This document shows positions 1 to 13,482 of a DNA stretch of 64,000 nt, piece by piece. The notes under the pieces were generated by a model. The model was not told the origin of the DNA. It worked only from the letters and a program-made list of their open reading frames with translations, and ran no database searches. The stretch's first letter is position 1; every line of letters starts with the position of its first letter. This DNA comes from Idiomarina aquatica (lineage in GTDB: Bacteria > Pseudomonadota > Gammaproteobacteria > Enterobacterales > Alteromonadaceae): positions 1,364,001 through 1,428,000 of the forward strand of contig NZ_PIPS01000001.1 in assembly GCF_003987185.1 (NCBI RefSeq), written 5' to 3'. Made by a program: the position numbers and the translations under genes.

Positions 1-82
1 TAAATCTTTTACTTTAACAGGAAATGATGTCAAACAGGCGGCTCAGGAAGTAAAGTCAAAAATAGAAGAGCTAATTAGGTGA
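1..82 (+). CDS. Rhs cassette 1: C-terminal end of an Rhs-type toxin protein (partial, 5' outside the window)
   Basis: An open frame enters from the left edge (first full codon at base 2) and stops with TGA at 80-82. The 26 visible residues end TGNDVKQAAQEVKSKIEELIR. This resembles the end of the Rhs C-terminal domain at 9665-10228 (SDAVKQAIDKIKKTFE): a charged helix with the same DxVKQA start. A small membrane-protein gene begins five bases after the stop, as in the other cassettes of this island, and a shared terminator repeat follows. From this layout I infer that it is the tail of an Rhs toxin tip. Whether it belongs to a full-length rhs gene or to another truncated cassette cannot be told from this window. 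Confidence 0.5.
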   Translation, partial: KSFTLTGNDVKQAAQEVKSKIEELIR

Positions 83-86
83 TACC

Positions 87-347
87 ATGGCAAAACACAA
101 TCAATTTAAAGCGACTTTGATAGCTTTAATAATCTGCATTATTAGCTTTAACTTTGTAAAAATCGGGGGGGAGTTCTATTTCAACCCCTTCTATATATTG
201 AGCTTTGTATTTGCAATAACACTGATCGTTAAGTCAATAAATTATGTTTGTCCTAGCTGTCAGAAAAACCAAGTAATTCGCTCATTTCTTAGTTATCGAC
301 TTCCAAAGGCGGAATGCTACTCTTGCAACTGTAAGTTAGAAAAATAA
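87..347 (+). CDS. Small membrane protein with zinc-ribbon-like cysteines, putative immunity protein of Rhs cassette 1
   Basis: 86 residues. Two hydrophobic segments lie at about residues 9-28 and 33-52, followed by a short soluble tail with two cysteine pairs (CPSC near 55 and CYSC near 77), a spacing that suggests a small metal-binding ribbon. The ATG lies five bases after the stop of the upstream Rhs fragment, so the two are probably translated together. Each later Rhs cassette also has a small hydrophobic protein in this position. Known Rhs systems place the immunity gene directly after the toxin tip, so immunity is the likely role, presumably in the inner membrane. No named family is recognised. 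Confidence 0.55.
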   Translation: MAKHNQFKATLIALIICIISFNFVKIGGEFYFNPFYILSFVFAITLIVKSINYVCPSCQKNQVIRSFLSYRLPKAECYSCNCKLEK

Positions 348-366
348 ATTTACTCTAGCGTGTCGA

Positions 367-406
367 TTTGAATCCATAGCCTCGCCCTCGCGGGGCTTTG
401 TTTTTT
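367..406 (+). terminator. Rhs-cassette terminator repeat, copy 1
   Basis: A GC-rich hairpin (AGCCTCGC, then CCT, then GCGGGGCT) is followed by a T-rich run, as expected of a rho-independent terminator. It is preceded by TTTGAATCCA. The whole block recurs almost unchanged at 10631-10670, 12360-12397 and 13442-13482, each time after the putative immunity gene of an Rhs cassette. It may also serve the minus-strand ORF at 437-733, whose stop lies about 30 bases to the right. Confidence 0.75.
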
Positions 407-436
407 GCTCACATCAAGGCAAGTCGTAGCGGTTCA

Positions 437-733
437 CTATTCAGATGTGACGGTGCAAGGTTTCGTGTCAATGCCATGCTTGGTGGCAAAAGCCATCAGT
501 TTCTTATCGTAAAAGTTCATATCCGGTTGGTAACGGCAGAAGAACTTTATTTCTGCATTTTCTTGGTCATAGATAGCCCGAATATCGTTTTCCCCAGCAT
601 CAATCGAGAAAGTACCATCGTCTAGCCGATAAGCAACCTGTCCGCCAACGAAGCATTCTTGCGTAAATGTTGTCAGCAGGCTTTCAACCTGCTCTGGCTT
701 CACAGTTTGAAATGCGGTGCGGCAGTATGGCAT
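437..733 (-). CDS. Conserved hypothetical protein (copy A)
   Basis: 98 residues, no recognised domain, no signal peptide or membrane segment. A second copy at 13512-13808 has exactly the same length. The last ~55 residues are nearly identical between copies (AGENDIRAIYDQEN, then FFCRYQ and NFYDKKLMAFATKHGIDTKP), while the first ~40 differ at many positions yet stay in frame and conservative (for example CFVGGQVAYRLDDG against SFVGGQSAYQLDDG). This pattern argues for a real gene under selection rather than a chance frame. It runs towards the cassette terminator, on the strand opposite the Rhs genes. Function unknown. Confidence 0.55.
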   Translation of the reverse strand: MPYCRTAFQTVKPEQVESLLTTFTQECFVGGQVAYRLDDGTFSIDAGENDIRAIYDQENAEIKFFCRYQPDMNFYDKKLMAFATKHGIDTKPCTVTSE

Positions 734-860
734 AGACTTTGGCTCTTGCTGTTTTTGCTGTCTTTCGATTATAGCTAAAAACAGTATCTGAGCACGGCTA
801 AATCCGCCGGGGTAGATTAATTACTGTTCATTGTTGTGGGGCGTGCTATGCAAAGACGCT

Positions 861-1045
861 TGTTCCTCGCTGACGGTTTTCTTGTTCCACCTTAAAAGTA
901 CTTGGCGTGCCATTTTTTGGGCGGACTGTGCCATTTGGATGAGAATTTGCACATAGATATTCCCATGGAAAGGAACATCTCAGCACCTTTAAGGGAAACG
1001 CTTGGTGACATTAAGGTGGAACACGAAAACCATCAAAGTGGAACA
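861..1045. repeat. ~185-bp segment with 35-bp inverted ends (copy A)
   Basis: Bases 861-895 and 1011-1045 are inverted repeats of each other with a handful of mismatches. Each arm contains two GTTCCAC-type motifs (for example GTTCCACCTTAA) spaced about 20 bases apart. The interior also has a GTGCCATTT motif twice. Repeated binding-site-like motifs in inverted terminal arrays are typical of transposon ends, including IS21-like and Tn7-like elements, so this may be a non-autonomous or internally deleted element. No convincing coding sequence lies inside. A second copy is at 13894-14079. Confidence 0.6.
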
Positions 1046-1092
1046 AAAACTATTTGTGTGAGTGAAGTATTTGTGAGTCGAAATTGACAGGT

Positions 1093-1252
1093 TTATTTGA
1101 AGCAAGGATGGTTATTAGCCAAGATCCAATGAAGTGTTTTGGTACAAAAAATACTTTCTGCTTCGTCGCTAAATGTAGGGGGCAAACTAAGCCCGATCTC
1201 TATAACTCTTCCTAGATCTGAGGATAGTCTTTGCTCGAATTGGTCTCTATCA
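1093..1252 (-). pseudogene. 3' part of an unrecognised gene split by the IS21 element
   Basis: Minus-strand frame ending with TAA at 1093-1095. Removing the IS and one copy of the 6-bp duplication joins this piece in frame to 3643-4373 and restores a 294-residue protein. This part encodes its C-terminal ~51 residues (RDQFEQRLSSDLGRVIEIG..., ending ILANNHPCFK). The same C-terminal piece occurs at 14127-14320 without the rest of the gene. Confidence 0.7.
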
Positions 1253-1307
1253 TATAGAGCGTCAACTATCTTGACTGATCAGCGTCAATTAACTTGACGG
1301 GTTGTCG

Positions 1308-2066
1308 TCATCCTTCTTGTTTAGTTTTCAGTGATGCTTTCCTCCTGTAGCTTTCCCCTAAGCACTGGATAATGGTCGCGTGATGCACCAGACGGTCGAT
1401 GGCTGCAATGGTCATGCTTGAGTCATCGAACAGCGTGTCCCAGTCCTCGAACGACTGATTCGACGTAATGATCATGCTGCAACGCTCGTACCGATGAGCA
1501 ATGAGCTCGAACAGGACGCTGGTTTCTTGCTCGGTTTTACGGATATAGCCGATGTCGTCGACGATAAGCACTGCGTACTTATCCAGTTTAAGTAATGCAT
1601 CCTCAAGCTTAAGCTCTTGTTTTGCTTGCTGCAGATGTTGCACTAATGCGGTTGCAGAGCTGAACTTCACACGGATACCAGCTTCGATTAGGCCGTAGCC
1701 TATACTGCTGGCGATGTGAGTTTTACCAACGCCACTGGCACCGAACAAGAGTATATTAGCGCCTTGTTTCACCCAGCCGGGCCGATCTATTAAGTCATGG
1801 ACCTGCGCCTTGTTAACGCCTTCTATGGCGTTGAAGTTAAAGCCGCTAAGGTGCTTGCCGGGCGGCAGTTTTGACTCACGCAGATGTCGTTGCAGTCTTT
1901 TGTCTTCGCGGCTGGCGAGTTCGGCACTGCATAACTCAGCAAGGTATTGTTGCGGTGACCACTGTTCATGGATGGCTTTCTCTGCCATAGTCTGCCAGAG
2001 TTCGCGGATTGAACCCAGACGCAGTTGTTTAAGCATTAGCGGCAATGAGGCGGTGGCGTTATCCAT
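1308..2066 (-). CDS. istB: IS21-family helper ATPase IstB
   Basis: 252 residues, normal length for IstB, the DnaA/DnaC-like AAA+ ATPase that assists the IstA transposase. The Walker A motif GASGVGKTH is at about 109-117 and the Walker B segment VLIVDDIG near 166-173. The sensor-like stretch MIITSNQSFEDW and the terminal R-R-x-S-L-K motif are also typical. A strong ribosome-binding site (GGAGGT) precedes the ATG at 2066, and the start overlaps the istA stop by eight bases. The frame is intact, unlike its partner istA. Confidence 0.93.
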   Translation of the reverse strand: MDNATASLPLMLKQLRLGSIRELWQTMAEKAIHEQWSPQQYLAELCSAELASREDKRLQRHLRESKLPPGKHLSGFNFNAIEGVNKAQVHDLIDRPGWVKQGANILLFGASGVGKTHIASSIGYGLIEAGIRVKFSSATALVQHLQQAKQELKLEDALLKLDKYAVLIVDDIGYIRKTEQETSVLFELIAHRYERCSMIITSNQSFEDWDTLFDDSSMTIAAIDRLVHHATIIQCLGESYRRKASLKTKQEG

Positions 2067-3551
2067 GATTACCTCCGTGCAGCAGTGATTGGTACTGACT
2101 CAGTGCGTGCTGATGAACGGTCATCTTAGGTATGGCTGCTGGCGGGCACGTAAATCGCTCTTCGCAGTCATAAATGCTCGGCACGCGACCATGCTCGATT
2201 TCGTTCATTACGAACTCGCCGAGTCGTTGCTCATGTCCAGTTTTACTGGCTAGATGAAGCAAGCGGACGATGTAGTAGCAGGCTTTATCTGCCATCATCG
2301 TGTCGTTCACGTGTGACCAGATATGTTTGTAGTTGTCGCTGGGTAACAGCTCATCACGCATTGTGAATGGCGGAACGCTCTGGGCTTTTTAACCAGTGCG
2401 TCTATGACATGCCGGTAATTGACGCTGCGTACTCGCTTAGACCCCTGTGCATAGACTCGTGGTAACGTATCAGTAAGGACAGTGCCCAGGTAAAGCTCCA
2501 GGCGGCTATCATAGAGCCTGACCAGCAAGCGACTTCCAACCAGTCGAGATGGCACGGTATAGGTCACGCGTTTCAAGGCGATGGTACTGGTGCGGCTTAC
2601 CCTCAGGTAATGTTCAGTGTAATTGACGCTGGTGTGCACAGGAAGCGGCTGTAATTGTCGCTGCTCTTGGGCTAGCTTATCAGCAACCCGACGGTTACGG
2701 CGCTCGATAATACTTTGTACGAACGCCTCATAATCAGATCTTGAGGTAAAGTCATAGCTACCACGTATTCTTAATGCTTGCTCCAGTTGAGCTTTAATGT
2801 GGCGATTCGGTGACTCGATAGCGCCATTTTCCTGCGCAACTCCCCGATTATTTCGGGAGGCTTTGAAGCCATAATGGCGCATTAGCTCGGTAAAGCGTTC
2901 AGTGAAGTCATCCTGCTCGGTACGGTTTTTATACGCTGCGCTTAAGCTGTCAGTGCGGATTTCAGCTGGCACGCCACCTGCTGCAATCAGAGCGTTCTGC
3001 AGACCATCAGAGAAAGCGGCAAAGCTCTCACCACCATAAATAACCTGAGCAAACGCCCAACCACACGCTGGCAACCGGAAGTGGAATAACTGATGTTGTA
3101 GCACTTCACCCAGAATACTGACCGGATATTGGACTTTTGTGAAGTCCGCAATTCCTAACCTGCCTAGCTCATGATGTTGGACAAAGACGACATCGCCTGA
3201 ACCAGCGTTAAGGTGTCGCCACTGCTTAACTCGGCGCTCCAGTGTACGTCGGGACGAAGGATTGAATTTATCTTGGTAGTGTTCGCATAAGTGGTCGTAT
3301 ATACCGACCGGCGTGATGTCGCTATCTTTTTCTAGCAAAGGGATTACAACGCTATCCCAAATTGATTCCAGCGGGTCAGGACGCGTTCGCCAGCTTCGTT
3401 GACCATTTTTAGGTTGAAGCGCCTGCTTTTCGATGCGATAGCCGGAGCTTTCAGAGATACCAGCTTTTGCCGCAGCTACCTTCTGAGTGTTGTTCTTTCT
3501 GAATTTCATATAAAGATTAACCTGTTGATCTGTAACTTGCTTTCCCGACAC
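2059..3551 (-). pseudogene. istA: IS21-family transposase IstA, frameshifted
   Basis: The 5' frame (GTG at 3551, GGAGGT six bases upstream) encodes 414 residues with an N-terminal HTH and a DDE integrase core: D136 (GIADFTK), D201 (RTDSLS) and E246 (QENGAIES). It then leaves the reading frame near 2360. The normal IstA C-terminus (MRDELLPSDNYKHIW..., through VTVHQHALSQYQSLL) continues in another frame down to 2059. The join ..FRHSQ|MRDELLP is restored by one added base near 2360, next to a short A run. A single-base deletion is the simplest reading. Sequencing error or a programmed shift cannot be excluded, although no classic slippery heptamer is seen. Confidence 0.82.
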
Positions 3552-3642
3552 AGCATTACCTCCGTTTTGCTGTATCGAACCCTATCAGATCAACCGGTCA
3601 AGATAATTGTCGCGGACCGGTCAGGTTAATTGTCGCTTAATA

Positions 3643-4373
3643 CTATCACCCGACGAAGAAGATGGTGTCAGCAGTTCGTTGAGCATTATTCCCATATCCA
3701 GCATTTTCAGTGTTCGGTATTTATAGCCAAACAAAAATAGAAAAAGTGCATAAGCATATTGCTCGGCTGTCGTTGGCCTTAAATGCTTGCACTCTCTGAT
3801 TTGGTTGAGTGTGATAAAAAGCAGTGCGTTGAGCGAGTCGAGTGATCTCGCTTCAAACTGTGTTTGCCTTTGACTAGGGTACGATTGCTTTAAAGCGCTG
3901 AGCGGTATTTCATCTAAGCAGTGCCAGCTAAACAGCTTTCTAAATAATTTCCCTCCGTATTGAATTGCAAACTGCTTCAGCGATGACTCTATCGTAACTC
4001 GATGGTCGATCAAAGACCAAAGCGGGTGCTTTAAGATATTGGCGGTTGGATAATTCACACCATCAAAGAATAAGTCGATGGTATTCGACTGTGTCATTGC
4101 TCTGCCAGCAAATAACTTGTACCAAAAGTTTGGATATTTCAGTTGGGTAGTGTCCTTTGAATCGTAGTCCAATGATTCGATGAAACGCACCATTGAAGGA
4201 TGGTTATTTTCTTCGAGATGCCTCTGAACAGCAATTTGTCCTGCAACCGATCGCATTACTGGAGACAACGCTAAATATCGACTTTTTATCTCCGTGCGCC
4301 TGTCCTCAGTCAGTGGGTAAAAAGCCTCCCAACTCCAGAAATTATTGAGTTCAATAGATGAAGTATTATTCAT
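3643..4373 (-). pseudogene. 5' part of an unrecognised gene interrupted by the IS21 element
   Basis: The frame starts at ATG 4373 and runs 243 codons to the IS boundary; read on into the IS it would end at 3621 with a short foreign tail. Together with 1093-1246 it would have encoded 294 residues. The product looks soluble and mostly helical, with aromatic-rich stretches (LNNFWSWEAFYPL, YPNFWYKLFAG) and a moderately hydrophobic region near 220-230. I do not recognise the family. The duplicated tail ends inside this gene at 3682, so only the last ~65 residues also occur at 14127-14320. The complete version therefore belonged to this left location. Confidence 0.65.
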
Positions 4374-4549
4374 TCACTGACCTTTCTATTTGAAGAATAT
4401 TAAACGAATTTTCAATAAATACAGCATATTAAGTATCTCCGCTCATTGAGTCATCAGGACGAATCTGGTTAATAAATCGACAATGTTTATTTCAAATTTT
4501 GAGTATAGGCTAATTGTCACCGTTAGTTTGATATGGAGGATGACAAACA

Positions 4550-4807
4550 TTGAGTGACGAAGAACGAGAATTTCTGGCCATGCAGCTTGAGCAAGATTTG
4601 TTGAAGTTATACGGCTCACCAATTCTCACCATTGAGCAATTACAACGAGCTTTGAACTACCGAAGCGTGGCTGCGGTGAAACAAGCCATTCAAAGGCAAA
4701 CGTTGCCCGTGCATATTTTTGAGCTTCCTAACAGAAGAGGACGATTTGCGCTGGTGAGAGATGTCTGTAAATTTTTGGCTAGCCAAGCCTGCGCGAGGGA
4801 GGACTGA
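4550..4807 (+). CDS. Small helix-turn-helix-like DNA-binding protein (tentative)
   Basis: 85 residues, TTG start with a GGAGG ribosome-binding site at about 4536-4540. The core LTIEQLQRALNYRSVAAVKQ followed by a basic loop and a beta-hairpin-like FALVRDVCKFLA has the shape of AlpA/excisionase-type winged-helix proteins, which serve as regulators or recombination directionality factors in mobile elements. That assignment rests on the pattern only. The gene is a single unit closed by a strong terminator at 4855-4889 and lies upstream of the IS21-like operon with its tyrosine recombinase. A link to that recombinase is possible but unproven. Confidence 0.5.
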   Translation: MSDEEREFLAMQLEQDLLKLYGSPILTIEQLQRALNYRSVAAVKQAIQRQTLPVHIFELPNRRGRFALVRDVCKFLASQACARED

Positions 4808-4854
4808 GCAATGTAATTCGCTAACTAAAAAATTTTATTGGCGCAAATAGAACA

Positions 4855-4889
4855 AAAGCCCTCAGAGCGGCAACTCTAAAGGGCTTTTT
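4855..4889 (+). terminator. Rho-independent terminator after the small HTH gene
   Basis: Stem AAAGCCCT/AGGGCTTT with an inner AGAG/CTCT pair and a small loop, followed by a T run. The remaining ~130 bases before istA hold the partial palindrome TGACATTTGTCA near 4938-4949, which may be an operator or transposase site. Confidence 0.85.
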
Positions 4890-5017
4890 GGTTGAGCATC
4901 GAATCGAAACTCGATACTGAATCATTGTTCTTGATGTGACATTTGTCAAGTTTCCTGCTGTTGAAAAGAAAGCTTTGGTCGCCTGCGCCTCTTTTTACCT
5001 ATTGAGAGGACATCAAA

Positions 5018-6568
5018 ATGATGAATGTCAGCACTATCCGAGCCGTCGTGAGGGCTAAGTTCGTGAAGCCCGACATCACTGTCAGAGAGCAGGCGGCTTT
5101 CGCTGGAGCATCGCCTTCAGCAACGCACCGTCTTAACAAGCGTTGTCAAAAACTCAAGATCGATCATCTGTTACTTGAGCAGCTAAGCAATAAGGAGGTT
5201 GTCGAAGTGCTTTTGTACTCCGACCATCGGACATCTTGTAAACGTGAGCCAGACTACAACGAAGCGCTACGCGAGTTAAGCAAAGCGCGAGGCAAACGTA
5301 AAAGCAGAACTGTTCTTTACCTTGAATACCGGGCTATCGACCCGGCAACGGCTATGAGCAAGACTCACTACTTTCGGATGCTTAATAAAGTCATGAAGCG
5401 CGTCAAGGTAGTTATGAAGCAGCATCATGTGGCTGGTGAAAATATGTATATCGACTATGCAGGCACAAAGGTATTTTACAAGGTCGGTGGCGAGAAAGTA
5501 TGGGTGAAAATCTTTGTCGCCACGTTAGGTGCGTCAAAGAAATTATTTGCTTTCGCAACAGAAGGAGAAAAGACAGTTCATTGGATTGACGGTATGACAA
5601 AAGCCGTCACTTACTTCGCCGGTTGTACTGAGACGGTGACAATGGATAACGCAAAAGCCCTAGTCAGCGAGCCGGGTCTTGTAGCTAATCTCGTTGATAA
5701 CGTGATGTTCTGGGCTGAGCACTACGGCTGTTTGATCAACACCTGTCGCGTCGGTCACCCCCAAGATAAGTCCTTGGTAGAAAATGGGGTCAAGTTTATT
5801 ACACAGCGTGTTTTAGTGCCGATGTTGAACATGACGTTTTTCGACATAAACGAGATCAATCAGTACATTCTAAAAGAAGTCGAGAAGCTCAATAATGAGT
5901 GCTTCCAAGGGTTTGATATTTCACGCAACGATCTCTTTGAGGAAAATGAGCGGGGTGCGTTGCGCCCTTGCCCTGCGACCCCTTATCGTATGGTAACTGA
6001 TCGCCAAGTTAAACGCGTCAAACCGGATTACCATTTTGAATATGGTAACCATGACTATTCCGTACCCTATACGCTTGCTGGAGAGTCCGTTGATATCGTC
6101 GTGACTCAAAATGAAATCGGCATCTATCACCAAAACCGTTTTGTTTATAAGCACCACCTCAGCAAAAACAAAGGTGGGTCTACGACCATTCCTGAGCACA
6201 TGTCAGCCGAGCATCTGGCCGATTTCAGTATGTGTGACAAAAAGGCCAATATTAAGTGGGCTGAGGACACTGGTGAACAAGTTCAGGCAATTGTTGAGAG
6301 CTGGTACTCGCAGACAAAGAACCCGCAGTCCCGGCCCATCGCTAAGCGCTGTCGAGCACTAATGAATTTGGTTCAAAAACAAGGGAGTAACCTTGTGAAC
6401 CAAGCGTGTGAATATGCGCTTCGTCATGACATGGATAAGCCCAGTGAAATCGAATTGATTATTAGCGCTCAAAAGGCGGAGGGTGGCTTCGAAAACCTTC
6501 CGTCTCGTGTTGAATTGCACGGCAACATTCGCGGTAGAGACTACTACGGAGATAACTATGATGCTTAA
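5018..6568 (+). CDS. istA: IS21-family transposase IstA (second element)
   Basis: 516 residues, full length for the family. A basic N-terminal region probably binds the ends. The DDE core shows D146 (MYIDYAGTKV), D210 (VTMDNAKAL) and E255 (DKSLVENGVK). A C-terminal beta-barrel-like region (HFEYGNHDYSVPYTLAGE) and a helical tail follow. GAGG lies about ten bases before the double ATG at 5018. The stop at 6568 overlaps the istB start. The frame is intact, so it is potentially active. Confidence 0.92.
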   Translation: MMNVSTIRAVVRAKFVKPDITVREQAAFAGASPSATHRLNKRCQKLKIDHLLLEQLSNKEVVEVLLYSDHRTSCKREPDYNEALRELSKARGKRKSRTVLYLEYRAIDPATAMSKTHYFRMLNKVMKRVKVVMKQHHVAGENMYIDYAGTKVFYKVGGEKVWVKIFVATLGASKKLFAFATEGEKTVHWIDGMTKAVTYFAGCTETVTMDNAKALVSEPGLVANLVDNVMFWAEHYGCLINTCRVGHPQDKSLVENGVKFITQRVLVPMLNMTFFDINEINQYILKEVEKLNNECFQGFDISRNDLFEENERGALRPCPATPYRMVTDRQVKRVKPDYHFEYGNHDYSVPYTLAGESVDIVVTQNEIGIYHQNRFVYKHHLSKNKGGSTTIPEHMSAEHLADFSMCDKKANIKWAEDTGEQVQAIVESWYSQTKNPQSRPIAKRCRALMNLVQKQGSNLVNQACEYALRHDMDKPSEIELIISAQKAEGGFENLPSRVELHGNIRGRDYYGDNYDA

Positions 6569-7795: not shown

Positions 7796-8729
7796 GCGTA
7801 TCTGGCGATGTGCCAAGTACTATTTTGAGCTTTGTCTCGCCAAGGGGCAAAGCTCAGATACCATCAGAGGCAAGCGCAGCGGGCTTAAAAAGTTTTTTCT
7901 CTGGTGCTTGGGGCGTAACGTTACTCGCGTAGACCAAATCAATTTAGACCTGATGGATGGCTATGCGGCGTATCTCAATGCTTATCGAAAGCCATTGGAC
8001 AATAAACCCCTGTGCGCAGCACAGAAGCGTAATCTTCTGACGTTCGTGAAAACCTTTGTGAAGTACCTGTACATTAAAGGGTTACTATCGGCTAATCCCC
8101 TTCAGAATATTGAGCTTCCATCAAAAGGTGAGCAGATCCCCAAAGCACTCTACACCGAGGAGGAAATCGAAGTCATACTTGAGCAACCGCTGCTGTTCGG
8201 CATTAAAGGACTGCGCGACAGGGCAATACTCGAAACCTTTTTTGCGACAGGCATACGTCGCGGTGAGCTTGTTAAGCTCAATGTTGACGATATTGATTTC
8301 TCAGCAAAGCTCGTTCGTGTTCATGGGAAGGGAAAGAAAGAGCGCCTAGTGCCAATCAGTCAGCGGGGCTGTGAATGGGTCGCGTTCTACATCGGAAAAA
8401 TCCGCCCCATGTTTGCCTTCATTGGTTCCGGGAAAGCGTTATTTCTGGCGAACAATGGGAAGCGCTACATACCCGGAAAGCTGTCAGACATGGCTTCTCA
8501 ATATGTGAAGCTTGCCGGGTTTGACCGCACCGGAGCTTGTCACCTGTACCGCCATAACACAGCGACAACGATGCTGGATAATGGTGCAGATTTAAGGCAT
8601 ATTCAAGAGATGCTTGGCCATGCAAGTATTCTGACAACTCAATTGTACACGCATGTAAGCCGTAAGAAACTTTCTCAAGTCTATCAGGACACTCATCCCT
8701 CAGCGCGAGGCGGTAGCGGGTTGTTTTGA
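7776..8729 (+). CDS. Tyrosine recombinase (XerC/D-like integrase)
   Basis: 317 residues from the ATG at 7776, preceded by an AGAG site; the open frame extends further upstream but into the previous gene. The N-terminal SAM-like core-binding domain (about 5-95) is followed by the catalytic domain with all expected residues: Arg in TGIRRGEL, Lys in HGKGKKER, His-x-x-Arg in CHLYRHNTATT, His in LGHAS and Tyr in TTQLYTHV. The length fits XerC/XerD-like recombinases. A complete tyrosine recombinase behind an IS21 transposase pair is unusual. It may resolve cointegrates or mediate site-specific insertion of the element. Confidence 0.88.
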   Translation: MVKPSTKRIWRCAKYYFELCLAKGQSSDTIRGKRSGLKKFFLWCLGRNVTRVDQINLDLMDGYAAYLNAYRKPLDNKPLCAAQKRNLLTFVKTFVKYLYIKGLLSANPLQNIELPSKGEQIPKALYTEEEIEVILEQPLLFGIKGLRDRAILETFFATGIRRGELVKLNVDDIDFSAKLVRVHGKGKKERLVPISQRGCEWVAFYIGKIRPMFAFIGSGKALFLANNGKRYIPGKLSDMASQYVKLAGFDRTGACHLYRHNTATTMLDNGADLRHIQEMLGHASILTTQLYTHVSRKKLSQVYQDTHPSARGGSGLF

Positions 8730-8745
8730 TGATTTAAAACAATAG

Positions 8746-8781
8746 TTGACATTGTGCATTCAACCCATCAAAATGATAGGT
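8746..8781 (+). promoter_or_regulatory. Promoter and operator-like palindrome of the toxin-antitoxin pair
   Basis: TTGACA at 8746-8751, a 17-base spacer, then CAAAAT as a possible -10. The -10 region overlaps the inverted repeat ACCCATCA-AAA-TGATAGGT (8763-8781), with a related half-site just downstream. Type II antitoxins usually repress their own operon through such palindromes. This is inferred from position and symmetry only. Confidence 0.55.
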
Positions 8782-8801
8782 ATCAGGTTGATAGGTTTTT
8801 G

Positions 8802-9143
8802 ATGAATAAAAACAACCCTAAAGGCGTAAACGAATTTCCTCTGTCGGAGGAAACCGCCAGAAAGATAATGAATGATCTGGCAACGAATTATACTCACAGG
8901 ATTCGATGGAGCAATCACGTCAAGGAACGCATGAGGGAGCGAGGGGTTACTACTGGACAAATAATCACCTTACTTAAGAGTAAGCATTCAGTATTCAGAG
9001 AAGGCCCGTATCCAGAAGTGAACGGAGACTGGAAATTTAACTTGAAAGGGTTAGCAGCAGGCAAGGTTATTGAATTGACTGTTGCACTTAAGAATCATCA
9101 TGACAGTCCTATGTCAGTTCTGGTAACTGTATGGCTCGATTAA
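8802..9143 (+). CDS. DUF4258-type protein, probable toxin of a type II toxin-antitoxin pair
   Basis: 113 residues from the ATG at 8802; the frame is open further upstream, but that start would lie inside the promoter/operator. The segment IRWSNHVKERMRERGVTTGQI followed by ILLK-like spacing matches the DUF4258 pattern (S-x-H-x-x-x-R-M-x-E-R-G), and the C-terminal half is beta-rich (VIELTVALKNH, SVLVTVWLD). DUF4258 proteins are commonly paired with HTH antitoxins and compared with RelE/MqsR-like RNases; no activity is assumed here. The antitoxin gene begins nine bases after its stop. Toxin-first order is as in mqsRA and higBA. Confidence 0.68.
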   Translation: MNKNNPKGVNEFPLSEETARKIMNDLATNYTHRIRWSNHVKERMRERGVTTGQIITLLKSKHSVFREGPYPEVNGDWKFNLKGLAAGKVIELTVALKNHHDSPMSVLVTVWLD

Positions 9144-9152
9144 GAGGTTGGT

Positions 9153-9593
9153 ATGTACCATTACATTGAAAGCGGTTTATCAAATATATATCTCAAAAAT
9201 GGTTTTACCGTTGAACACATCGATGGTGAAGAATATACAAGTATTGATGATATGAATGGGCTGCATAAAGCGATAGGACAGGCTGTTGTGGACAGCAGAA
9301 AACCACTTACGCATGAAGAATTTAAGTTTTTGCGTATTGAGATGAATATTTCTCAGAAAATGCTTGGCACACGTTTTGGTGTGGATGAGCAGACAATTGC
9401 CCGTTATGAAAAAGGCAAGACAAAAATTCCTCGAACTACAGACGCGGCTTTAAGAACACTGTACATGGAAAGCCAAGAAAAAAATAATCCAGTGAGCTAT
9501 TTTCTTGATCTACTGGCGGACACAGAAGCAGAGGAAGCTGCAAAAGAAATTCGCCTAGAGGAAATAGAAGATCACTGGGAAGTTGCCGCCTAG
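9153..9593 (+). CDS. HTH-XRE antitoxin-like regulator (MqsA/HigA type)
   Basis: 146 residues with an AGAGG site before ATG 9153. The C-terminal half contains a clear XRE helix-turn-helix: EEFKFLRIEMNISQKMLGTR, then FGVDEQTIARYEKGKTKIPR, close to the MqsA/HigA type (Q-x-x-x-G-x-x-F-G-V-x-x-x-T-I-x-R-Y-E-K-G). The N-terminal half lacks the zinc-binding cysteines of MqsA. Acidic C-terminus. It should neutralise the upstream toxin and repress the shared promoter. Confidence 0.78.
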   Translation: MYHYIESGLSNIYLKNGFTVEHIDGEEYTSIDDMNGLHKAIGQAVVDSRKPLTHEEFKFLRIEMNISQKMLGTRFGVDEQTIARYEKGKTKIPRTTDAALRTLYMESQEKNNPVSYFLDLLADTEAEEAAKEIRLEEIEDHWEVAA

Positions 9594-9664
9594 ATACTTT
9601 AGGGCGGGTCAGATTATGAGGGCTGTCCTATATAAATTCTGGTTCCTACATCGTACTAATTTAT

Positions 9665-10228
9665 ATGCAGGCACGATACTATGATCCCGTAATTGGGCGG
9701 TTTTATTCGAATGACCCTGTTGGATTTACAGGTGAAATTGACACTTTCAATCGATATTCATATGTGGCAAACAATCCATATAAGTATACTGACCCTACAG
9801 GTGAAGAAAAAATATCCTTGGGATTAACCGGTGAAGCAATGTTATTTGCTGGAGCCAGAGTAGGCTTTTCGGTAAGTTTTGACACCGAAACTTTAGAGAT
9901 TGGTGCGACGTATACGGCTGGGCCTAGGCTAGGAGTCGGCGTTGGAGTAGAGCCTAGTTTAACTATTGAACAGAGTGGTGAAGTTGCCCAAGACTCTTCT
10001 AACTCCGAAATCGCGGTGACTGCTGATGTAACTGTTGGTGCGATTTCTTATGGAGGAGAAGTAATGTCGGAAAACACCCTTAGTGGAGATGTTAAAAACC
10101 AAGCTAGCTTTGGCGAGCCCAAAGGAAAAGTCGGCTTGGGTGCCTCGGTAGGTGTTGAATTTAAAGGAGAAGTAACTTCCGACGCTGTCAAACAGGCAAT
10201 AGACAAAATAAAGAAAACTTTTGAGTGA
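9665..10228 (+). CDS. Rhs cassette 2: truncated Rhs core end plus variable C-terminal domain
   Basis: 187 residues. It opens with MQARYYDPVIGRFYSNDPVG, then NRYSYVANNPYKYTDPTGE, the conserved end of the Rhs repeat-associated core. The rest (about 47-187) is a variable tip of unknown type, predicted beta-rich with many alternating Gly/Val/Glu (LGVGVGVEPSLTIEQ, VGLGASVGVEFKGEV) and a C-terminal helix like that of cassette 1. There is no good ribosome-binding site, and the beta-propeller/YD-repeat part of a real Rhs is missing. It is therefore likely a silent tip donor or a displaced orphan. Its upstream leader differs from that of cassettes 3 and 4, apparently replaced when the segment to the left was inserted. 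Confidence 0.75.
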   Translation: MQARYYDPVIGRFYSNDPVGFTGEIDTFNRYSYVANNPYKYTDPTGEEKISLGLTGEAMLFAGARVGFSVSFDTETLEIGATYTAGPRLGVGVGVEPSLTIEQSGEVAQDSSNSEIAVTADVTVGAISYGGEVMSENTLSGDVKNQASFGEPKGKVGLGASVGVEFKGEVTSDAVKQAIDKIKKTFE

Positions 10229-10231
10229 TGT

Positions 10232-10621
10232 ATGACTATCAAAAATAAAGAAACTTTAAATTTTTATACTGAAGCCCCTGCAAGATTAGTGATTTTCTCG
10301 TTTTTTTCTGCTGGGGTGTATAACATGTACTACTTTTACAAAAATTTTTTGAAAAATAGTGACGCCTCATCGCAATTGGTACTAGTTGCAAAATCAATCC
10401 TGTATCCGTTTTTCTGCTTTGGCTTGTTAAAAAAAGCGAGTACAAATACTGGAGATGATTCCAAATCTAGCGTAAAAGTTGTGCTTTTGTGGGGGGCGCT
10501 TTTCATTTTTGTTTATGCAGGTGGATTGTTGCAAGGGGATTTAAAATATCTAGCTTTCGCTACATTTATACCCCTACTTGGTATCAATTCCCTATTTAAG
10601 CGTGCAAACTCGCGGATATAA
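10232..10621 (+). CDS. Small multi-pass membrane protein, putative immunity of Rhs cassette 2
   Basis: 129 residues. About three to four hydrophobic segments are visible: LVIFSFFSAGVYNMYYFYKN, then SILYPFFCFGLL, then VVLLWGALFIFVYAGGLL and YLAFATFIPLLGI. The ATG at 10232 lies three bases after the toxin stop. By position it is the immunity partner of the cassette 2 tip. No family recognised. Confidence 0.6.
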   Translation: MTIKNKETLNFYTEAPARLVIFSFFSAGVYNMYYFYKNFLKNSDASSQLVLVAKSILYPFFCFGLLKKASTNTGDDSKSSVKVVLLWGALFIFVYAGGLLQGDLKYLAFATFIPLLGINSLFKRANSRI

Positions 10622-10630
10622 ATAAATCAA

Positions 10631-10670
10631 TTTGAATCCAAAGCCTCGCCCTCGCGGGGCTTTGTTTTTT
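10631..10670 (+). terminator. Rhs-cassette terminator repeat, copy 2
   Basis: Same TTTGAATCCA leader, AGCCTCGC/GCGGGGCT hairpin and T run as at 367-406. It closes cassette 2. Confidence 0.8.
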
Positions 10671-10700
10671 GGGTGCTCAATGCGGTAGGCTTCAATAATT

Positions 10701-10771
10701 AAGCTATACTGCTAACACACTGTATTAGATAAATTTTATTGATGCTTTACTATGGCTCGTAGTGTCGATTA
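10701..10771 (+). repeat. Rhs-cassette leader repeat (copy before cassette 3)
   Basis: 71 bases directly before the ATG of cassette 3. They align without gaps to 12426-12496 before cassette 4 at roughly three quarters identity. The last 24 bases are almost identical (TATGGCTCGTAGT then TCGATTA). The reading frame of the Rhs core is closed by a TAG in this leader, so it is not core coding sequence. It could be a weak promoter or an ancestral recombination junction. Confidence 0.65.
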
Positions 10772-11449
10772 ATGTATATGCAGGCACGATACTATGATCC
10801 AGTTATCGGGCGGTTTTATTCGAATGATCCGGTGGATGCGTTGGGCCACATGCAACGTGGTAATAGTATTGCTCGTGGATTTGGCAGATATACATACGCA
10901 AACAATAATCCATATAAATATGTTGACCCGGATGGCGAATTTGGATTGTTGGGAGCTGCTATCGGAGGAGCAATTGGAGGACTTTCATCAATAGCTGTTC
11001 AAGCTTTTACTGGTGATAAGCAAATAAATTGGTCAACTGTTGGAGCTGCTACGCTAACTGGCGCGGCAGTGGGCGCAACAGGTGGATTAGCTGGTGCTGC
11101 CGCTACAAAAATTGGACTTACAGGTGCTGAGGCTGCGGCGACAGTACTTACTCCCTCCGCTGGTGTTGCTGCTGTCGGGGGCGGATTGACCCAGATGGTT
11201 GAAAATACGGCGAATGGTGACCCCATACAACAAGATGTTGCGAAAGCGTCTGGTGTGAGTGCCGCAGGCACGGTAATTGGTGGTGTAGCGGGAGAAAAAG
11301 CGGTGAAAGCCCTAACAAACTCAACAAATTTAGGGCCAGCAGGAAGTCTCGCTGGAGGTAAAGCTACAGCCGAACTAATTGTTACAGGCACTCAAGAAGT
11401 TATAAATCAAGCGGCTTCTAATACGTGTGTCGGAGACGACTGCAACTAG
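10772..11449 (+). CDS. Rhs cassette 3: truncated Rhs core end plus Gly/Ala-rich C-terminal domain
   Basis: 225 residues. The first ~50 are the Rhs core end (MYMQARYYDPVIGRFYSNDP... and YTYANNNPYKYVDPDGEFG). The remainder is rich in Gly, Ala and Val with glycine-zipper-like runs (GLLGAAIGGAIGGLSS, ATLTGAAVGATGGLAGAA, VIGGVAGEKA) and no catalytic motif that I recognise. It ends CVGDDCN. Such sequences insert into or cross membranes. It could be a pore-forming tip or a translocation region whose enzyme domain is lost. The start lacks a clear ribosome-binding site. Confidence 0.75.
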   Translation: MYMQARYYDPVIGRFYSNDPVDALGHMQRGNSIARGFGRYTYANNNPYKYVDPDGEFGLLGAAIGGAIGGLSSIAVQAFTGDKQINWSTVGAATLTGAAVGATGGLAGAAATKIGLTGAEAAATVLTPSAGVAAVGGGLTQMVENTANGDPIQQDVAKASGVSAAGTVIGGVAGEKAVKALTNSTNLGPAGSLAGGKATAELIVTGTQEVINQAASNTCVGDDCN

Positions 11450-11498
11450 TTATAGATTGTGAAATTAATCGAGTTAATATTGCAGAAAATGAGATCGT

Positions 11499-11738
11499 AT
11501 GAACCTTTATTTTAAGTGCATAAAATCTGGAATTTGGAAAGCGAGTTTGCTGTTTTTAGTGTTTTTGTTGCTTGCAGTTTTTGTGGCATTAATCGACGAC
11601 AGAAATGACACGAGCTTCCTATTAGATTTTGACTTTTATATAAATATGATAAAAAGCCCTCTCATTGTAGGCATCTATATCATTCTGGCCATAGTGTTTT
11701 CGGTCTTATCAATTATGACACTGAGTAAAAGTAATTAG
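11499..11738 (+). CDS. Small two-helix membrane protein, putative immunity of Rhs cassette 3
   Basis: 79 residues with two hydrophobic helices at about 14-31 (ASLLFLVFLLLAVFVALI) and 54-74 (PLIVGIYIILAIVFSVLSIM), separated by a short polar loop. The gap to the toxin stop is 49 bases, longer than in the other cassettes, and the ribosome-binding site is weak. Immunity is inferred from position. Confidence 0.5.
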   Translation: MNLYFKCIKSGIWKASLLFLVFLLLAVFVALIDDRNDTSFLLDFDFYINMIKSPLIVGIYIILAIVFSVLSIMTLSKSN

Positions 11739-11844
11739 TAATGTTAATCCTGCCTTTATGCAGGACGTTGTTAAAAACTGACGCACTACAGAGTCTTTTT
11801 GTCTTCATTTAGCGTGTCATGTAGTGGTTAGAGGAGAAGCTCAT

Positions 11845-12345
11845 ATGGATTCAGGTCTACTAGGCGGTATTATAGGGGGAATAGTATCCATTGCCTTATG
11901 CAGCGTCGTTTCGACAAGAATTAGCCATAAATCAAACAATGGGCAACTAAAATTCGGTTTAATTGTATCTATCCTGTTTTGGGTTTGCTTATTTATTATT
12001 GGAATTTGTCTTTACAGTTTGATTTTCACAGACATTAATTATGAAAGGGATCTGTTTCCCATAATTGGTCTGATTGTGGGTTTCGGCTTGGCGGCTGTGT
12101 ACTCATTTGGAGAAGCATATAAGGTTAAAGGCAGCTTCAATTCTCAAACGATAGAGTTTCATACTCCTTGGACTGGGAGTAAACATGAAAAATGGACAGA
12201 TTTGGAGTCAGCGAAATTCAACGCTAGTGCGAATTGGTACACTTTAAACTTCAAAGGCGGTTCGAAAATTCGGCTTTCAGCTTTAATGCAAGGTCATGGG
12301 TTGGTCATCGACCATGTAAAATCTTTGGGCTATTCCGTTAAGTAA
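11845..12345 (+). CDS. Membrane protein with soluble C-terminal domain (second accessory protein of cassette 3)
   Basis: 166 residues from the ATG at 11845, preceded by GAGGAGAA; a GTG seven codons earlier has no such site. Three hydrophobic segments (about residues 5-23, 38-60 and 74-94) are followed by a soluble beta-rich tail (FNSQTIEFHTPWTGSKHEKW, then NWYTLNFKGGSKIRL) somewhat like bacterial PH-type domains. It lies ~105 bases after 11738 and before the cassette terminator. It may be a second immunity protein, or the surviving immunity gene of a cassette that lost its toxin. Confidence 0.55.
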   Translation: MDSGLLGGIIGGIVSIALCSVVSTRISHKSNNGQLKFGLIVSILFWVCLFIIGICLYSLIFTDINYERDLFPIIGLIVGFGLAAVYSFGEAYKVKGSFNSQTIEFHTPWTGSKHEKWTDLESAKFNASANWYTLNFKGGSKIRLSALMQGHGLVIDHVKSLGYSVK

Positions 12346-12359
12346 ATTATGAATAATGT

Positions 12360-12397
12360 TTTGAATCCATAGCCTCGCCCTTTCGGGGCTTTTTTTT
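12360..12397 (+). terminator. Rhs-cassette terminator repeat, copy 3
   Basis: TTTGAATCCATAGCCTCGCC then CTTTCGGGGCT and a long T run. It closes cassette 3; one compensated loop change relative to the other copies. Confidence 0.8.
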
Positions 12398-12425
12398 GAC
12401 ATCAACCGTGCAGACTACAAAGACT

Positions 12426-12496
12426 CAACTATACTGTTAAGTTACTGTACTAGTTATACTTTATTGACAATGTATTATGGCTCGTAGTATCGATTA
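12426..12496 (+). repeat. Rhs-cassette leader repeat (copy before cassette 4)
   Basis: Gap-free counterpart of 10701-10771. This copy contains TTGACA at 12464-12469 and TATCGA 18 bases further on, a possible weak promoter. The other copy reads TTGATG at that place, so promoter function is uncertain. Confidence 0.6.
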
Positions 12497-13207
12497 ATGT
12501 ATATGCAGGCACGATACTATGATCCAGTCATAGGTCGTTTCTATTCGAATGATCCGGTTGGGTATACTGATGCTAATCCAGTCATGTCATTCAACCGATA
12601 TATGTATGCAAACAATAACCCATATAAATATAAAGACCCTGATGGTGAATTTATACAATTTGCTATTGGTGCTGCTGTTGGATTTGCAAGTGAGGTAATA
12701 ACCCAAATAGCTTCAGGTGGAAGTGTAAGTGATTGGGGAGAGGTAGCCATGCAAACTGGTATTGGCGCTATCTCAGGAGGAACAGGCGGTGCGGCAGGTA
12801 AGTTAGCGAGTAAAGCTATCGGTGCATTAACAAAACCAGCTTCGGCAATGGGAAGCGGTGCTTCAAAGGTTGCAACTGAAGGTATAAGTGGTGCTGTATC
12901 AGGTGCTGTGACGGGAGCAACAGGAAGCTCATTAACACAATTATCCCAAACGGGCAGTATAGATGGTGGACAAGTTCTGGAAGCTGCTGGTAAAGGTGCA
13001 GCTCTTGGTGCTGTGTCAGGTGGAACTAGCGGACAATTTCAAGCAAATGCTACTCAAAAGACTCTTGGGAATTCTCGTGCGCAAACTATGTTCACCAATA
13101 CTCAGCCGGGAGCTACTGCTGGTAACGTAGCAGGTAATTCTGTTAATGCAGTATCCTCTGTTGCAGATAATGTCGCTTCAGGATGCGAGAGGCAAGGAGG
13201 GTGTTAA
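12497..13207 (+). CDS. Rhs cassette 4: truncated Rhs core end plus Gly/Ala-rich C-terminal domain
   Basis: 236 residues. The Rhs core end (MYMQARYYDPVIGRFYSNDP... and NRYMYANNNPYKYKDPDGEF) is followed by a low-complexity tip rich in Gly, Ala, Ser and Thr (FAIGAAVGFASEVITQIASG, GISGAVSGAVTGATGSS, GKGAALGAVSGGTSG). It ends CERQGGC; like cassette 3 it closes with two nearby cysteines. No enzyme motif is seen. Membrane insertion or pore formation is the most natural inference. Its stop overlaps the start of the immunity candidate (TAATG), with AAGGAGGG seven bases upstream, so the pair is tightly coupled. Confidence 0.75.
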   Translation: MYMQARYYDPVIGRFYSNDPVGYTDANPVMSFNRYMYANNNPYKYKDPDGEFIQFAIGAAVGFASEVITQIASGGSVSDWGEVAMQTGIGAISGGTGGAAGKLASKAIGALTKPASAMGSGASKVATEGISGAVSGAVTGATGSSLTQLSQTGSIDGGQVLEAAGKGAALGAVSGGTSGQFQANATQKTLGNSRAQTMFTNTQPGATAGNVAGNSVNAVSSVADNVASGCERQGGC

Positions 13208-13446
13208 TGAGACCAAGTAATAAAAAGTTGCTATTTCGGTATTTATTGTTATTTCCCATATACAATGTGGTGGGAATTGCTGTTGGTAGCTATGTTCTCT
13301 ATTTGCTTTTCGGTTGGGAGAAAAGCTACGCAATAGCATTTTTCAAAGTTGGAGCGGTTTTCTTAGTTTTACTGTTCTATCTATTGAATATAAGGACTTT
13401 GATAACTGCAATATCAGGAACGTTCAGCTCAAAGAAATCACTTTGA
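13207..13446 (+). CDS. Small two-helix membrane protein, putative immunity of Rhs cassette 4
   Basis: 79 residues from the ATG at 13207, which overlaps the toxin stop by one base and has a strong AAGGAGGG site. Hydrophobic helices lie at about 10-32 (YLLLFPIYNVVGIAVGSYVL) and 42-65 (AFFKVGAVFLVLLFYLLNI). Same length and topology as 11499-11738, although the sequences differ. The stop codon lies inside the terminator repeat. Confidence 0.65.
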   Translation: MRPSNKKLLFRYLLLFPIYNVVGIAVGSYVLYLLFGWEKSYAIAFFKVGAVFLVLLFYLLNIRTLITAISGTFSSKKSL

Positions 13447-13482
13447 ATCCAAAGCCTCGCCCTCGCGCGGCTTTGTTTTTTT
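13442..13482 (+). terminator. Rhs-cassette terminator repeat, copy 4
   Basis: Same block as at 367-406, here overlapping the stop of the upstream gene. The stem has one changed base (AAAGCC/GGCTTT and CGC/GCG still pair), then a T run. Confidence 0.75.

What the first reader, a model, noticed from the sequence alone, without database searches (positions are those of the whole stretch)
1..13482. Serial array of truncated Rhs tip cassettes, each with an immunity candidate and a common terminator
Four units share one layout: a start at the last ~20 residues of the Rhs core (YMQARYYDPVIGRFY), an unrelated C-terminal domain, an immediately following small membrane protein, and a near-identical TTTGAATCCA-plus-hairpin terminator. 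Orphan rhs tips are known in enterobacteria, but here the repeated 5' core end and 3' terminator give each unit two homology arms, as in a cassette archive that could be copied into a full rhs gene. The full gene is not in this window. The archive role is inference.
Basis: partly seen in the sequence, partly recalled or inferred. Interest (0 to 1): 0.75.

Follow-up and report, generated by a model that had tools for sequence, protein, structure and literature searches.

The report
Integron-like shuffling of Rhs toxin tips
A marine bacterium keeps a row of spare toxin-tip and immunity cassettes behind a full-length toxin gene, and the sequence suggests that a mobile element with its own recombinase, rather than chance homology, inserts and stacks these cassettes at one exact DNA site.

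Summary
The array is real, but its layout differs from the finding. A full-length rhs gene (1675 aa) lies directly left of the window and ends at window 82; the three true orphan tips start at 9662, 10775 and 12500. Between them sits a mobile module: IS21-type transposase and ATPase, a DnaG_N-like protein and a XerC/D-like tyrosine recombinase. The tips start with the same ~29 nt (TATATGCAGGCACGATACTATGATCCAGT), nearly fixed even at synonymous positions across many genera. 59 of 66 orphans carry a 21-nt non-coding left half that forms an inverted repeat with it; 0 of 65 core-fused tips do. In 15 of 15 informative loci found by the recombinase alone, a tip site lies downstream on the same strand. 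In a same-genus genome the module sits as an IS21-type insertion (6-bp target duplication; empty site in the 9 other genomes that have the flank) in circularly permuted order. Best reading: an integron-like system in which circles integrate at the rhs core end, giving rhs a new tip and pushing old tips downstream as a silent array. The recombinase step is inferred. Papers whose passages I read explain such arrays by homologous or illegitimate recombination; two say that no integrase is known for them.

The parts
1..82 (+). Last codons of the full-length rhs gene (whole gene = window -4945..82, 1675 aa); its tip-1 site lies at window -529
87..347 (+). Immunity candidate of the current rhs tip (86 aa)
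   Evidence: position after the tip; function inferred
367..406 (+). Shared terminator TTTGAATCCA plus hairpin
437..733 (-). f98, 98-aa protein of unknown function; part of the element, repeated at 13512-13814 (77%)
946..961 (+). Abutted transposon ends: RE ...TTTGCA, 2 bp CA, LE TAGATATT... (circle or tandem type junction)
927..1252 (-). Stretch with the C-terminal remainder of the DUF250 gene, split from its N-terminal part by an IS21 copy
1308..3551 (-). Resident IS21-type insertion sequence (252-aa and 414-aa ORFs); absent at this place in L006, so taken as a later insertion, not part of the module
3621..4373 (-). N-terminal part of the DUF250 gene (294 aa and intact in L006)
4550..4807 (+). 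hl85, small protein at the head of the module
5018..6568 (+). IstA-like IS21-family DDE transposase (NF033546, 163.1 bits, cut-off 160)
6555..7310 (+). IstB-like helper ATPase (NF038214, 206.9 bits, cut-off 200)
7307..7795 (+). 162-aa protein with weak DnaG_N similarity (24.1 bits, Pfam cut-off 26), found next to the recombinase
7776..8729 (+). TyrRec: XerC/D-like tyrosine recombinase, R-K-H-R-H-Y set intact
8754..9143 (+). Cargo: DUF4258 protein (toxin-antitoxin-like, inferred)
9153..9593 (+). Cargo: HTH protein resembling MqsA-type antitoxins (below the NCBIfam cut-off)
9641..9661 (+). Left half-site GGTTCCTACATCGTACTAATT (right end of the integrated element)
9662..9690 (+). Right half-site / core TATATGCAGGCACGATACTATGATCC... 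of cassette 2
9665..10228 (+). Orphan tip 2
10232..10621 (+). Immunity candidate 2
   Evidence: function inferred
10631..10670 (+). Shared terminator
10671..10774 (+). Intercassette element: tandem TATACTGCTAA / CACTGTATTA repeats and left half GGCTCGTAGTGTCGATTAATG
10775..10803 (+). Right half-site of cassette 3
10772..11449 (+). Orphan tip 3 (same cassette in L006 and, joined to a core fragment, in L007)
11499..11738 (+). Immunity candidate 3a (79 aa)
   Evidence: function inferred
11824..12345 (+). Immunity candidate 3b (173 aa, MARVEL-like hit below cut-off)
12360..12399 (+). Shared terminator
12400..12499 (+). Intercassette element with left half GGCTCGTAGTATCGATTAATG
12500..12528 (+). 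Right half-site of cassette 4
12497..13207 (+). Orphan tip 4
13207..13446 (+). Immunity candidate 4 (79 aa)
   Evidence: function inferred
13442..13481 (+). Shared terminator (in the repeat family, not listed by the consensus scan)
13512..13814 (-). f98', second copy of f98
13980..13995 (+). Second abutted RE-CC-LE junction
14127..14489 (-). Truncated second DUF250: remnant of an older copy of the element

Best explanation
The locus is an integron-like platform built into a toxin gene. The last ~29 nt of the rhs core (TATATGCAGGCACGATACTATGATCCAGT, coding YMQARYYDPV) double as the target site of a XerC/D-like tyrosine recombinase. A cassette runs from this site through tip, immunity gene and terminator to a 21-nt left half-site; as a circle the two halves join into a ~47-bp imperfect palindrome. 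Recombination of a circle with the rhs site gives rhs a new in-frame tip with its immunity gene, and moves the former tip downstream behind a terminator and a non-coding left half, where it is silent. The recombinase travels with an IS21-type transposon that carries one such cassette plus cargo; circles formed at its ends (RE/LE) supply the module. Shown by sequence: the site, the half-site rule, recombinase adjacency, one cassette attached to one core and displaced behind an unrelated core, exact gain or loss of one cassette, one IS21-type insertion with target duplication, and the circular permutation. Inferred: that this recombinase catalyses the exchange, that circles are the substrate, that insertion is at the front, and that the small ORFs are immunity genes.
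For: (1) DNA-level constraint: among 112 tips found by a protein motif in the 75 genome-contig loci plus window and its left flank, 45 of 53 orphans and 45 of 55 core-fused tips have the 26-mer exactly; 4 were in between. In 45 fused tips (Aestuariibacter array left out) the commonest codon takes 0.80-1.00 at nine codons, then 0.36-0.72 at the next seven although 39-44 of 45 keep the residue; 17 rhs core ends from other gammaproteobacterial families show 0.35-0.88 at the nine positions. (2) Half-site rule: left-half score at least 15/21 in 59 of 66 orphans, at most 13 in 65 fused, random positions at least 16 in 0.06%. (3) Recombinase: in 325 genomes of the window's family, 15 of 15 with a close homologue (E<=1e-120) have the site, against 84 of 325 overall (6e-10 if genomes were independent, which they are not). 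By locus, 15 of 15 informative homologues of at least 57% identity found by the recombinase search have a tip site (family 1 or 2) downstream on the same strand within 6 kb; with loci that had been fetched by a tip it is 23 of 24; 0 of 9 more distant ones, eight of them with only ~1.5 kb of flank. Catalytic residues invariant in 14 (which residues are catalytic is recalled). (4) In seven other elements the recombinase is 59-82% and its 162-aa neighbour 48-70% identical to the window's, IstA 24-51%. (5) L006 equals the window with cassette 2 missing, junction inside the 26-nt core, both sides about 99%. (6) The cassette attached to the window's rhs core is an orphan in G424 (91-93%), behind an rhs gene whose core is only 33% identical. 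(7) G424 also has the module as an 8.7-kb insertion with terminal inverted repeats (score 60, shuffled maximum 35) and duplication CATAGC, empty in the 9 other genomes that have the flank, in permuted order relative to the window. (8) A second rhs class (YYKARIYHPKLGRF) has its own site next to related recombinases; the four best off-site matches to the left half (19-20/21) all lie at it; it is in 30 of 325 genomes, control pattern 0.
Against: No recombination was observed. 69 of the 84 genomes with the site have no recombinase at E<=1e-85, so many arrays must be immobile or served in trans. Seven of 66 orphans lack the left half. Crossover positions do not all fit one point: in three of the five same-cassette pairs (L017/L027, L056/L123, L059/L142) codons at +26 to +44 differ while the rest of the cassette is 97-100% identical, and the other two pairs also differ in that stretch, whereas the L006 and L037 junctions lie at or before +26; this suggests homologous exchange or gene conversion as well. 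The ~14-nt space between the clear inverted arms is wider than the 6-8 bp overlap usual for this enzyme class (recalled). One homologue of at least 57% (L048) has no site in its 1.7 kb downstream. Only one clear permutation and transposition case was worked out. The left-half consensus was drawn from the same orphans that were scored. A few arrays hold a site in the opposite orientation (L036, L133, L136). An Aestuariibacter array of about 20 tips with this site has a different left boundary and no such recombinase.
Confidence: 0.72

Rival explanations
1. Classical C-terminal displacement: tips move by RecA-dependent homologous recombination over the conserved core end, as proposed for enterobacterial rhs; the nearby recombinase only resolves or circularises its own transposon.
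For: The known model for such arrays (Jackson 2009, PMC2935791, passages; Koskiniemi 2014, PMC3967940, passages). Synonymous patches at +26..+44 recombine separately from the rest of the cassette. 69 of 84 genomes with sites lack the recombinase at E<=1e-85. The Aestuariibacter tips keep core fragments.
Against: Most orphans have no core left of TATATGCAGG, so homology is only ~29-62 nt. The same cassette is attached to one core and displaced behind another that is 33% identical, whereas Jackson reports tips limited to cores of the same clade. Homology needs do not predict invariance of 29 nt with free codons on both sides, nor the inverted left half and its absence from 65 of 65 fused tips.
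Confidence: 0.2
2. The left half plus ATG is an expression signal, so orphans are stand-alone toxin-antitoxin genes and conservation reflects translation start.
For: 25 of 66 orphans have an ATG at -3 and the site itself holds an ATG at +3; Rhs orphans have been studied as toxin-antitoxin modules in Salmonella (PMC7043789, search listing and abstract start only).
Against: 0 of 66 have a Shine-Dalgarno-like motif; 4 promoter-like hits in the array against 9.5 in shuffles; the same 29 nt are nearly invariant inside the long rhs gene where no start is needed.
Confidence: 0.04
3. The array is a graveyard: IS-driven tandem duplication and decay around rhs with no organised mobility; the recombinase neighbours by chance.
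For: IS21 copy, a split gene and a truncated second element copy in the window; the tip-3 copy in L006 carries a short deletion.
Against: Recombinase followed by a tip site on the same strand in 15 of 15 informative loci found by the recombinase, in several genera; intact recombinase; cassettes 99% identical between genomes with one cassette gained or lost.
Confidence: 0.04

Closest known systems
Rhs C-terminal displacement arrays / orphan rhs and cdiA-CT modules (Jackson 2009; Poole 2011; Koskiniemi 2014)
   Same: Full-length gene followed by a string of silent tip-immunity pairs; newest tip attached, older ones shunted downstream; circular intermediates were already proposed.
   Different: [quoted passage not shown] Here: in most orphans no core fragment, a 29-nt DNA-constrained site, a half-site rule and an adjacent tyrosine recombinase.
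Integrons
   Same: Tyrosine recombinase, promoter-less cassettes with a terminal recombination site, insertion next to a fixed platform site, older cassettes pushed back (works like; integron features recalled).
   Different: Recombinase is not IntI (TIGR02249 83.9 bits, cut-off 265); no attC-type RYYYAAC/GTTRRRY pair (0 of 66); the platform site is inside a coding gene and makes protein fusions; module rides on an IS21-type transposon.
IS21-family elements
   Same: IstA and IstB above NCBIfam cut-offs, terminal inverted repeats, 6-bp target duplication, abutted ends.
   Different: Carries a second recombination module, a toxin-tip cassette and cargo genes.
Xer/shufflon-type tyrosine recombinases
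   Same: XerC/D-like catalytic domain; C-terminal variants of a surface or secreted protein exchanged (shufflon recalled).
   Different: In most arrays examined the sites are direct repeats (exceptions L036, L133, L136), so insertion/excision rather than inversion is expected; scores lie below the XerC and XerD equivalog cut-offs.
V. cholerae T6SS immunity gene arrays (Kirchberger 2017, PMC5361080)
   Same: Effector-immunity modules insert and displace older ones; the authors compare it with integrons.
   Different: They state that so far there is no evidence that an integrase facilitates the insertion (passage); no site or recombinase in the passages read.
Polyimmunity loci next to XerC/D genes (Zhang 2012, PMC3482391)
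   Same: The authors note recombinase genes beside immunity arrays and call a role conceivable (passage).
   Different: No site, cassette boundary or toxin-tip fusion was defined in the passages read.

Membership tests
Orphan Rhs tip array (C-terminal displacement) | Full-length rhs gene upstream with the same core end | tested here: met
Orphan Rhs tip array (C-terminal displacement) | Downstream fragments with unrelated C-termini, each followed by an immunity candidate | tested here: met
   immunity function not tested
Orphan Rhs tip array (C-terminal displacement) | Fragments lack translation start signals | tested here: met
   0 of 66 SD-like; sequence only
Orphan Rhs tip array (C-terminal displacement) | Fragments keep core pieces of varying length from the same rhs clade | tested here: not met
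   No core left of TATATGCAGG in the window orphans; same cassette attached to one core and behind another 33% identical. Core pieces are kept in the Aestuariibacter array and some other loci
Integron | IntI-family integrase | tested here: not met
   TIGR02249 83.9 bits against cut-off 265
Integron | attC sites with RYYYAAC / GTTRRRY core pairs (motifs recalled) | tested here: not met
   0 of 66 orphans with both in -45..+35; shuffles 0.34
Integron | Cassettes inserted by the integrase at a platform site | not testable with these tools
   Arrangement fits; no reaction shown
IS21-family transposon | IstA and IstB | tested here: met
   NF033546 163.1/160; NF038214 206.9/200
IS21-family transposon | Terminal inverted repeats and short target duplication | tested here: met
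   L126 only: inverted ends score 60 against shuffled maximum 35; CATAGC on both sides, single copy in the 9 empty sites, CATGGC in one of them
Xer-type tyrosine recombinase | Catalytic R-K-H-R-H-Y | tested here: met
   Aligned to XerD 1a0p; invariant in 14 sequences; identity of the catalytic residues recalled
XerC/XerD (chromosome dimer resolvase equivalogs) | Score above curated cut-off | tested here: not met
   TIGR02224 214.1/335.15; TIGR02225 213.9/329.6; NF002331 295.4/371
Gamma-mobile-trio islands | GmtY recombinase | tested here: not met
   NF040693 16.2 bits against cut-off 340

The most novel reading that the evidence does not exclude
A distinct class of site-specific cassette platform: a tyrosine recombinase and its site evolved inside the reading frame of a polymorphic toxin so that toxin tips and immunity genes are exchanged between unrelated Rhs carriers and genera, carried by an IS21-type transposon that also ships anti-phage defence systems (CBASS, Gabija and Thoeris genes as cargo), with apparently two site families for two Rhs core classes (no recombinase tree was built).
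Probability: 0.55. Interest if true: 0.9.

Novelty: new variant of a known kind. Interest (0 to 1): 0.82.

Why it matters
How polymorphic toxins swap tips has long been open. Jackson 2009 proposed circles and homologous recombination and noted that no integrase was known with Rhs (passages); Kirchberger 2017 noted the likeness to integrons and the lack of evidence for an integrase (passages). This locus supplies a candidate enzyme, a defined site, a rule that tells attached from displaced tips, and natural before/after pairs, so the question can be tested with reporter DNA. If true, it also links inter-bacterial weapons and phage defence in one mobile element. None of the titles and abstract starts listed by my ten paper searches (open-licence PubMed Central only, lists capped) describes it; subscription papers and most preprints are not held.

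Tried and rejected
Orphans as independently expressed genes: no start signals, no promoter excess. attC-type integron site: not met. A compensatory change between the two site families in the inverted repeat looked promising from single sequences (note) but the full table did not support it, so it is not claimed. A note says that G424 carries the tip-1 cassette 'fused + orphan'; on recheck the second copy starts 120 nt inside the cassette and 1.5 kb behind the fused site, so it is a displaced partial copy, not the attached tip. A second circular-permutation case from L135/L140 was looked for; the shared stretch turned out to be the common terminator and the case is undecided. The strict control motif gave only 3 contexts; a looser one gave 18 from 17 of 30 loci, 17 after dropping L170, a relative. 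The exact site in viral contigs: 0. Plasmids: 17 records with partial similarity, none covering 80% of the query; not followed. The first 'same upstream' screen used too strict a cut-off and was rerun.

Rows dropped or selected: the Aestuariibacter loci (L033, L060, L141, L142) left out of the codon and terminator counts because they repeat one array. One search was given 38 loci of my choice; hits that do not reach query residue 300 were skipped; loci whose contig ends close behind the recombinase (L108/L134, L110, L121) were set aside; loci of one place (L050/L135, L077/L133, L084/L136, L006/L143) count once. Of the 24 informative homologues of at least 57%, nine (L009, L011, L014, L017, L036, L048, L056, L080, and a second fragment in L136) were not found by the recombinase search itself; eight of these had been fetched because they hold a tip, so the 15-of-15 count is the fair one. 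The many weaker Xer-like hits (E 1e-40 to 1e-85) were not examined for sites, apart from those named. The 135 contexts include loci fetched because they match the site, so exact-match rates are quoted. The search for related loci kept the best 80 of 260 stretches, so more distant relatives are under-represented.

Full report
What is there. The window starts 82 bases before the end of a full-length rhs gene. The gene (ORF of 1675 aa) lies at L005:7055-12082, window -4945..82, and carries the same core end. It is followed by an 86-aa immunity candidate and the terminator. Three orphan tips follow much later, at 9662, 10775 and 12500. The four TTTGAATCCA-plus-hairpin stretches are real (0.30 expected), and the motif recurs in 37 of 110 related cassettes. 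The 9 kb in between hold a resident IS21 copy (1308-3551) and a module: hl85, IstA, IstB, a 162-aa DnaG_N-like protein, a XerC/D-like tyrosine recombinase (TyrRec, 7776-8729) and a DUF4258/HTH pair that looks like a toxin-antitoxin system.

The site. The 75 loci fetched by tip 3, the window and its left flank hold 112 tips by a protein motif. In 45 of 53 orphans and 45 of 55 core-fused tips the DNA is exactly TATATGCAGGCACGATACTATGATCC, including synonymous positions. In 45 fused tips with the Aestuariibacter array left out, the commonest codon takes 0.80-1.00 at YMQARYYDP, 0.36-0.72 at the next seven codons, whose residue is kept in 39-44 of 45, and 0.98 at the following N and D. Seventeen rhs core ends from other gammaproteobacterial families show 0.35-0.88 at the first nine. 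So the DNA itself is constrained, over about 29 nt. Left of the site, fused tips have ordinary core codons, whereas 59 of 66 orphans have a non-coding 21-nt half, GGWTCGTARTNYSRAYTAMTK, that forms an inverted repeat with GCAGGCACGATACTATGATCC; the 65 fused tips score 13/21 at most. In at least 21 of the 66 orphans (by a regular expression; more by eye) the half is part of a ~100-nt element with tandem TATACTGNTAA/ACTGTATTA repeats, as between the window's cassettes; behind module cargo only the 21 nt are seen. In 325 genomes of the window's family (unnamed; by the named loci probably Alteromonadaceae) the site occurs in 84 and its reversed control in none.

The recombinase. TyrRec aligns to XerD (1a0p, E 1.8e-38) and keeps R-K-H-R-H-Y; these are invariant in 14 sequences. 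It scores below the XerC, XerD and integron-integrase cut-offs. In the same 325 genomes 21 have a homologue at E<=1e-85. The 15 with E<=1e-120 all have the site; the 6 weaker ones have none. By locus, 15 of 15 informative homologues of at least 57% identity that the recombinase search itself found (14 in the family, and G253 of the order) have a tip site of family 1 or 2 downstream on the same strand within 6 kb. With loci that had been fetched by a tip it is 23 of 24; the exception is L048. None of 9 more distant ones has a site, eight of them with only ~1.5 kb fetched. In seven other elements IstA is 24-51% identical to that of the window, the 162-aa protein 48-70% and TyrRec 59-82%, as expected if TyrRec is tied to the invariant site. 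A second rhs class, ending YYKARIYHPKLGRF, has its own site (TAYTACAAAGCACGGATNTATCATCC) next to recombinases of 57-62% identity. The four best off-site matches to the left half (19-20/21) lie at it, and three more score 17, a level where chance matches are common; it occurs in 30 of 325 genomes.

Movement seen in sequence. L006 equals the window at about 99% but lacks cassette 2: window 3643-9700 is followed by 10827-11784, with the junction inside the 26-nt core; its tip 3 also carries a short deletion. Tip 3 occurs in Alteromonas joined to a core fragment (L007, 84-86%). The cassette attached to the window's rhs core occurs in G424 as an orphan (91-93%), with a partial second copy (97%), behind an rhs gene that has another attached tip and a core only 33% identical. 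L058 has the window's rhs core at 90% and another tip; identity ends 56 nt into the site.

The transposon. In G424 the module stands without rhs between unrelated genes. Its ends are inverted repeats (score 60, shuffled maximum 35), and the 8.7-kb element is flanked by CATAGC on both sides. Of 19 genomes of the genus searched, 10 hold the left flank; the 9 other than G424 have the uninterrupted sequence. Its order is LE-DUF250-hl85-IstA-IstB-162aa-TyrRec-cargo-left half-site-tip-immunity-f98-RE. In the window the same parts read site-tip1-immunity-f98-RE, CA, LE-DUF250-...-TyrRec-cargo-left half. That is the circle with RE joined to LE, opened at the tip site and lying in rhs. A second RE-CC-LE junction and a truncated DUF250 behind tip 4 are the remains of an older copy. 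[quoted passage not shown]

Mechanism. The simplest account is integron-like: circles (simple cassettes, or the whole transposon circle) recombine through left-half/right-half sites with the core end of rhs; rhs gains a tip and its immunity gene; the old tip is moved behind a terminator and a left half. The orphans look silent (0 of 66 with an SD-like motif; promoter-like hits below shuffles). Steps not shown: catalysis by TyrRec, the circle as substrate, front insertion, immunity function. Against a single fixed crossover: codons at +26..+44 differ in three of five same-cassette pairs that are otherwise 97-100% identical, so homologous exchange seems to act too. 69 of the 84 genomes with sites lack the recombinase at E<=1e-85.

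Comparison. [quoted passage not shown] Kirchberger 2017 compared T6SS immunity arrays with integrons and reported no evidence for an integrase (passages). Koskiniemi 2014 gave evidence for recombination within a shared 522-bp region in Salmonella (passages). Poole 2011 showed that orphan CdiA-CT/immunity modules encode functional pairs and that an orphan immunity protein is made (passages). Zhang 2012 noted XerC/D genes next to some polyimmunity loci (passages). The locus is an orphan tip array by its anatomy, fails the core-fragment feature of that model, and is not an integron by enzyme or site, though it works like one.

Verdict.

Noticed in passing
L128 5448-8585, L137 8922-11503, L134 18130-18672 and 8595-10304: Cargo of related elements matches PADLOC models of anti-phage defence: CBASS cyclase/HORMA/TRIP13/NucC, Gabija GajA and GajB, Thoeris ThsA (5' part at a contig end) and another GajA; 2 of the 10 proteins scanned, a 960-aa and a 571-aa cargo gene, had no match.
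   Followed up: partly
L141 3099-18703, L142 197-16449, overlapping L033 and L060 (Aestuariibacter sp. AA17): An array of about 20 tips behind a full rhs gene in which each unit keeps the last ~260 nt of the core and has another precise left boundary (...TTTTCACTAACAA before GCCATAACCGCCGCGTAAAAG); no TyrRec homologue at E<=1e-85 in this genome.
   Followed up: partly
L130 5888 (G391): A tip site with neither rhs core nor left half upstream (score 10 of 21), among ordinary chromosomal genes: possibly integration at a secondary site.
   Followed up: no
window 367-1252 and 13442-14320: The f98/DUF250 stretch is present twice (77% protein identity for f98), the second copy truncated before an AbiEi-type gene at 14440-15234.
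   Followed up: partly
site positions +26 to +44 of the tips: Codons after the invariant stretch occur as a few recurring haplotypes (GTT-ATC-GGG, GTC-ATA-GGT, GTG-ATT-GGG) that recombine separately from the cassettes.
   Followed up: partly
L048: An Oxalobacteraceae metagenome contig carries the module (TyrRec 63%) near an rhs-like tip, without the exact site.
   Followed up: no
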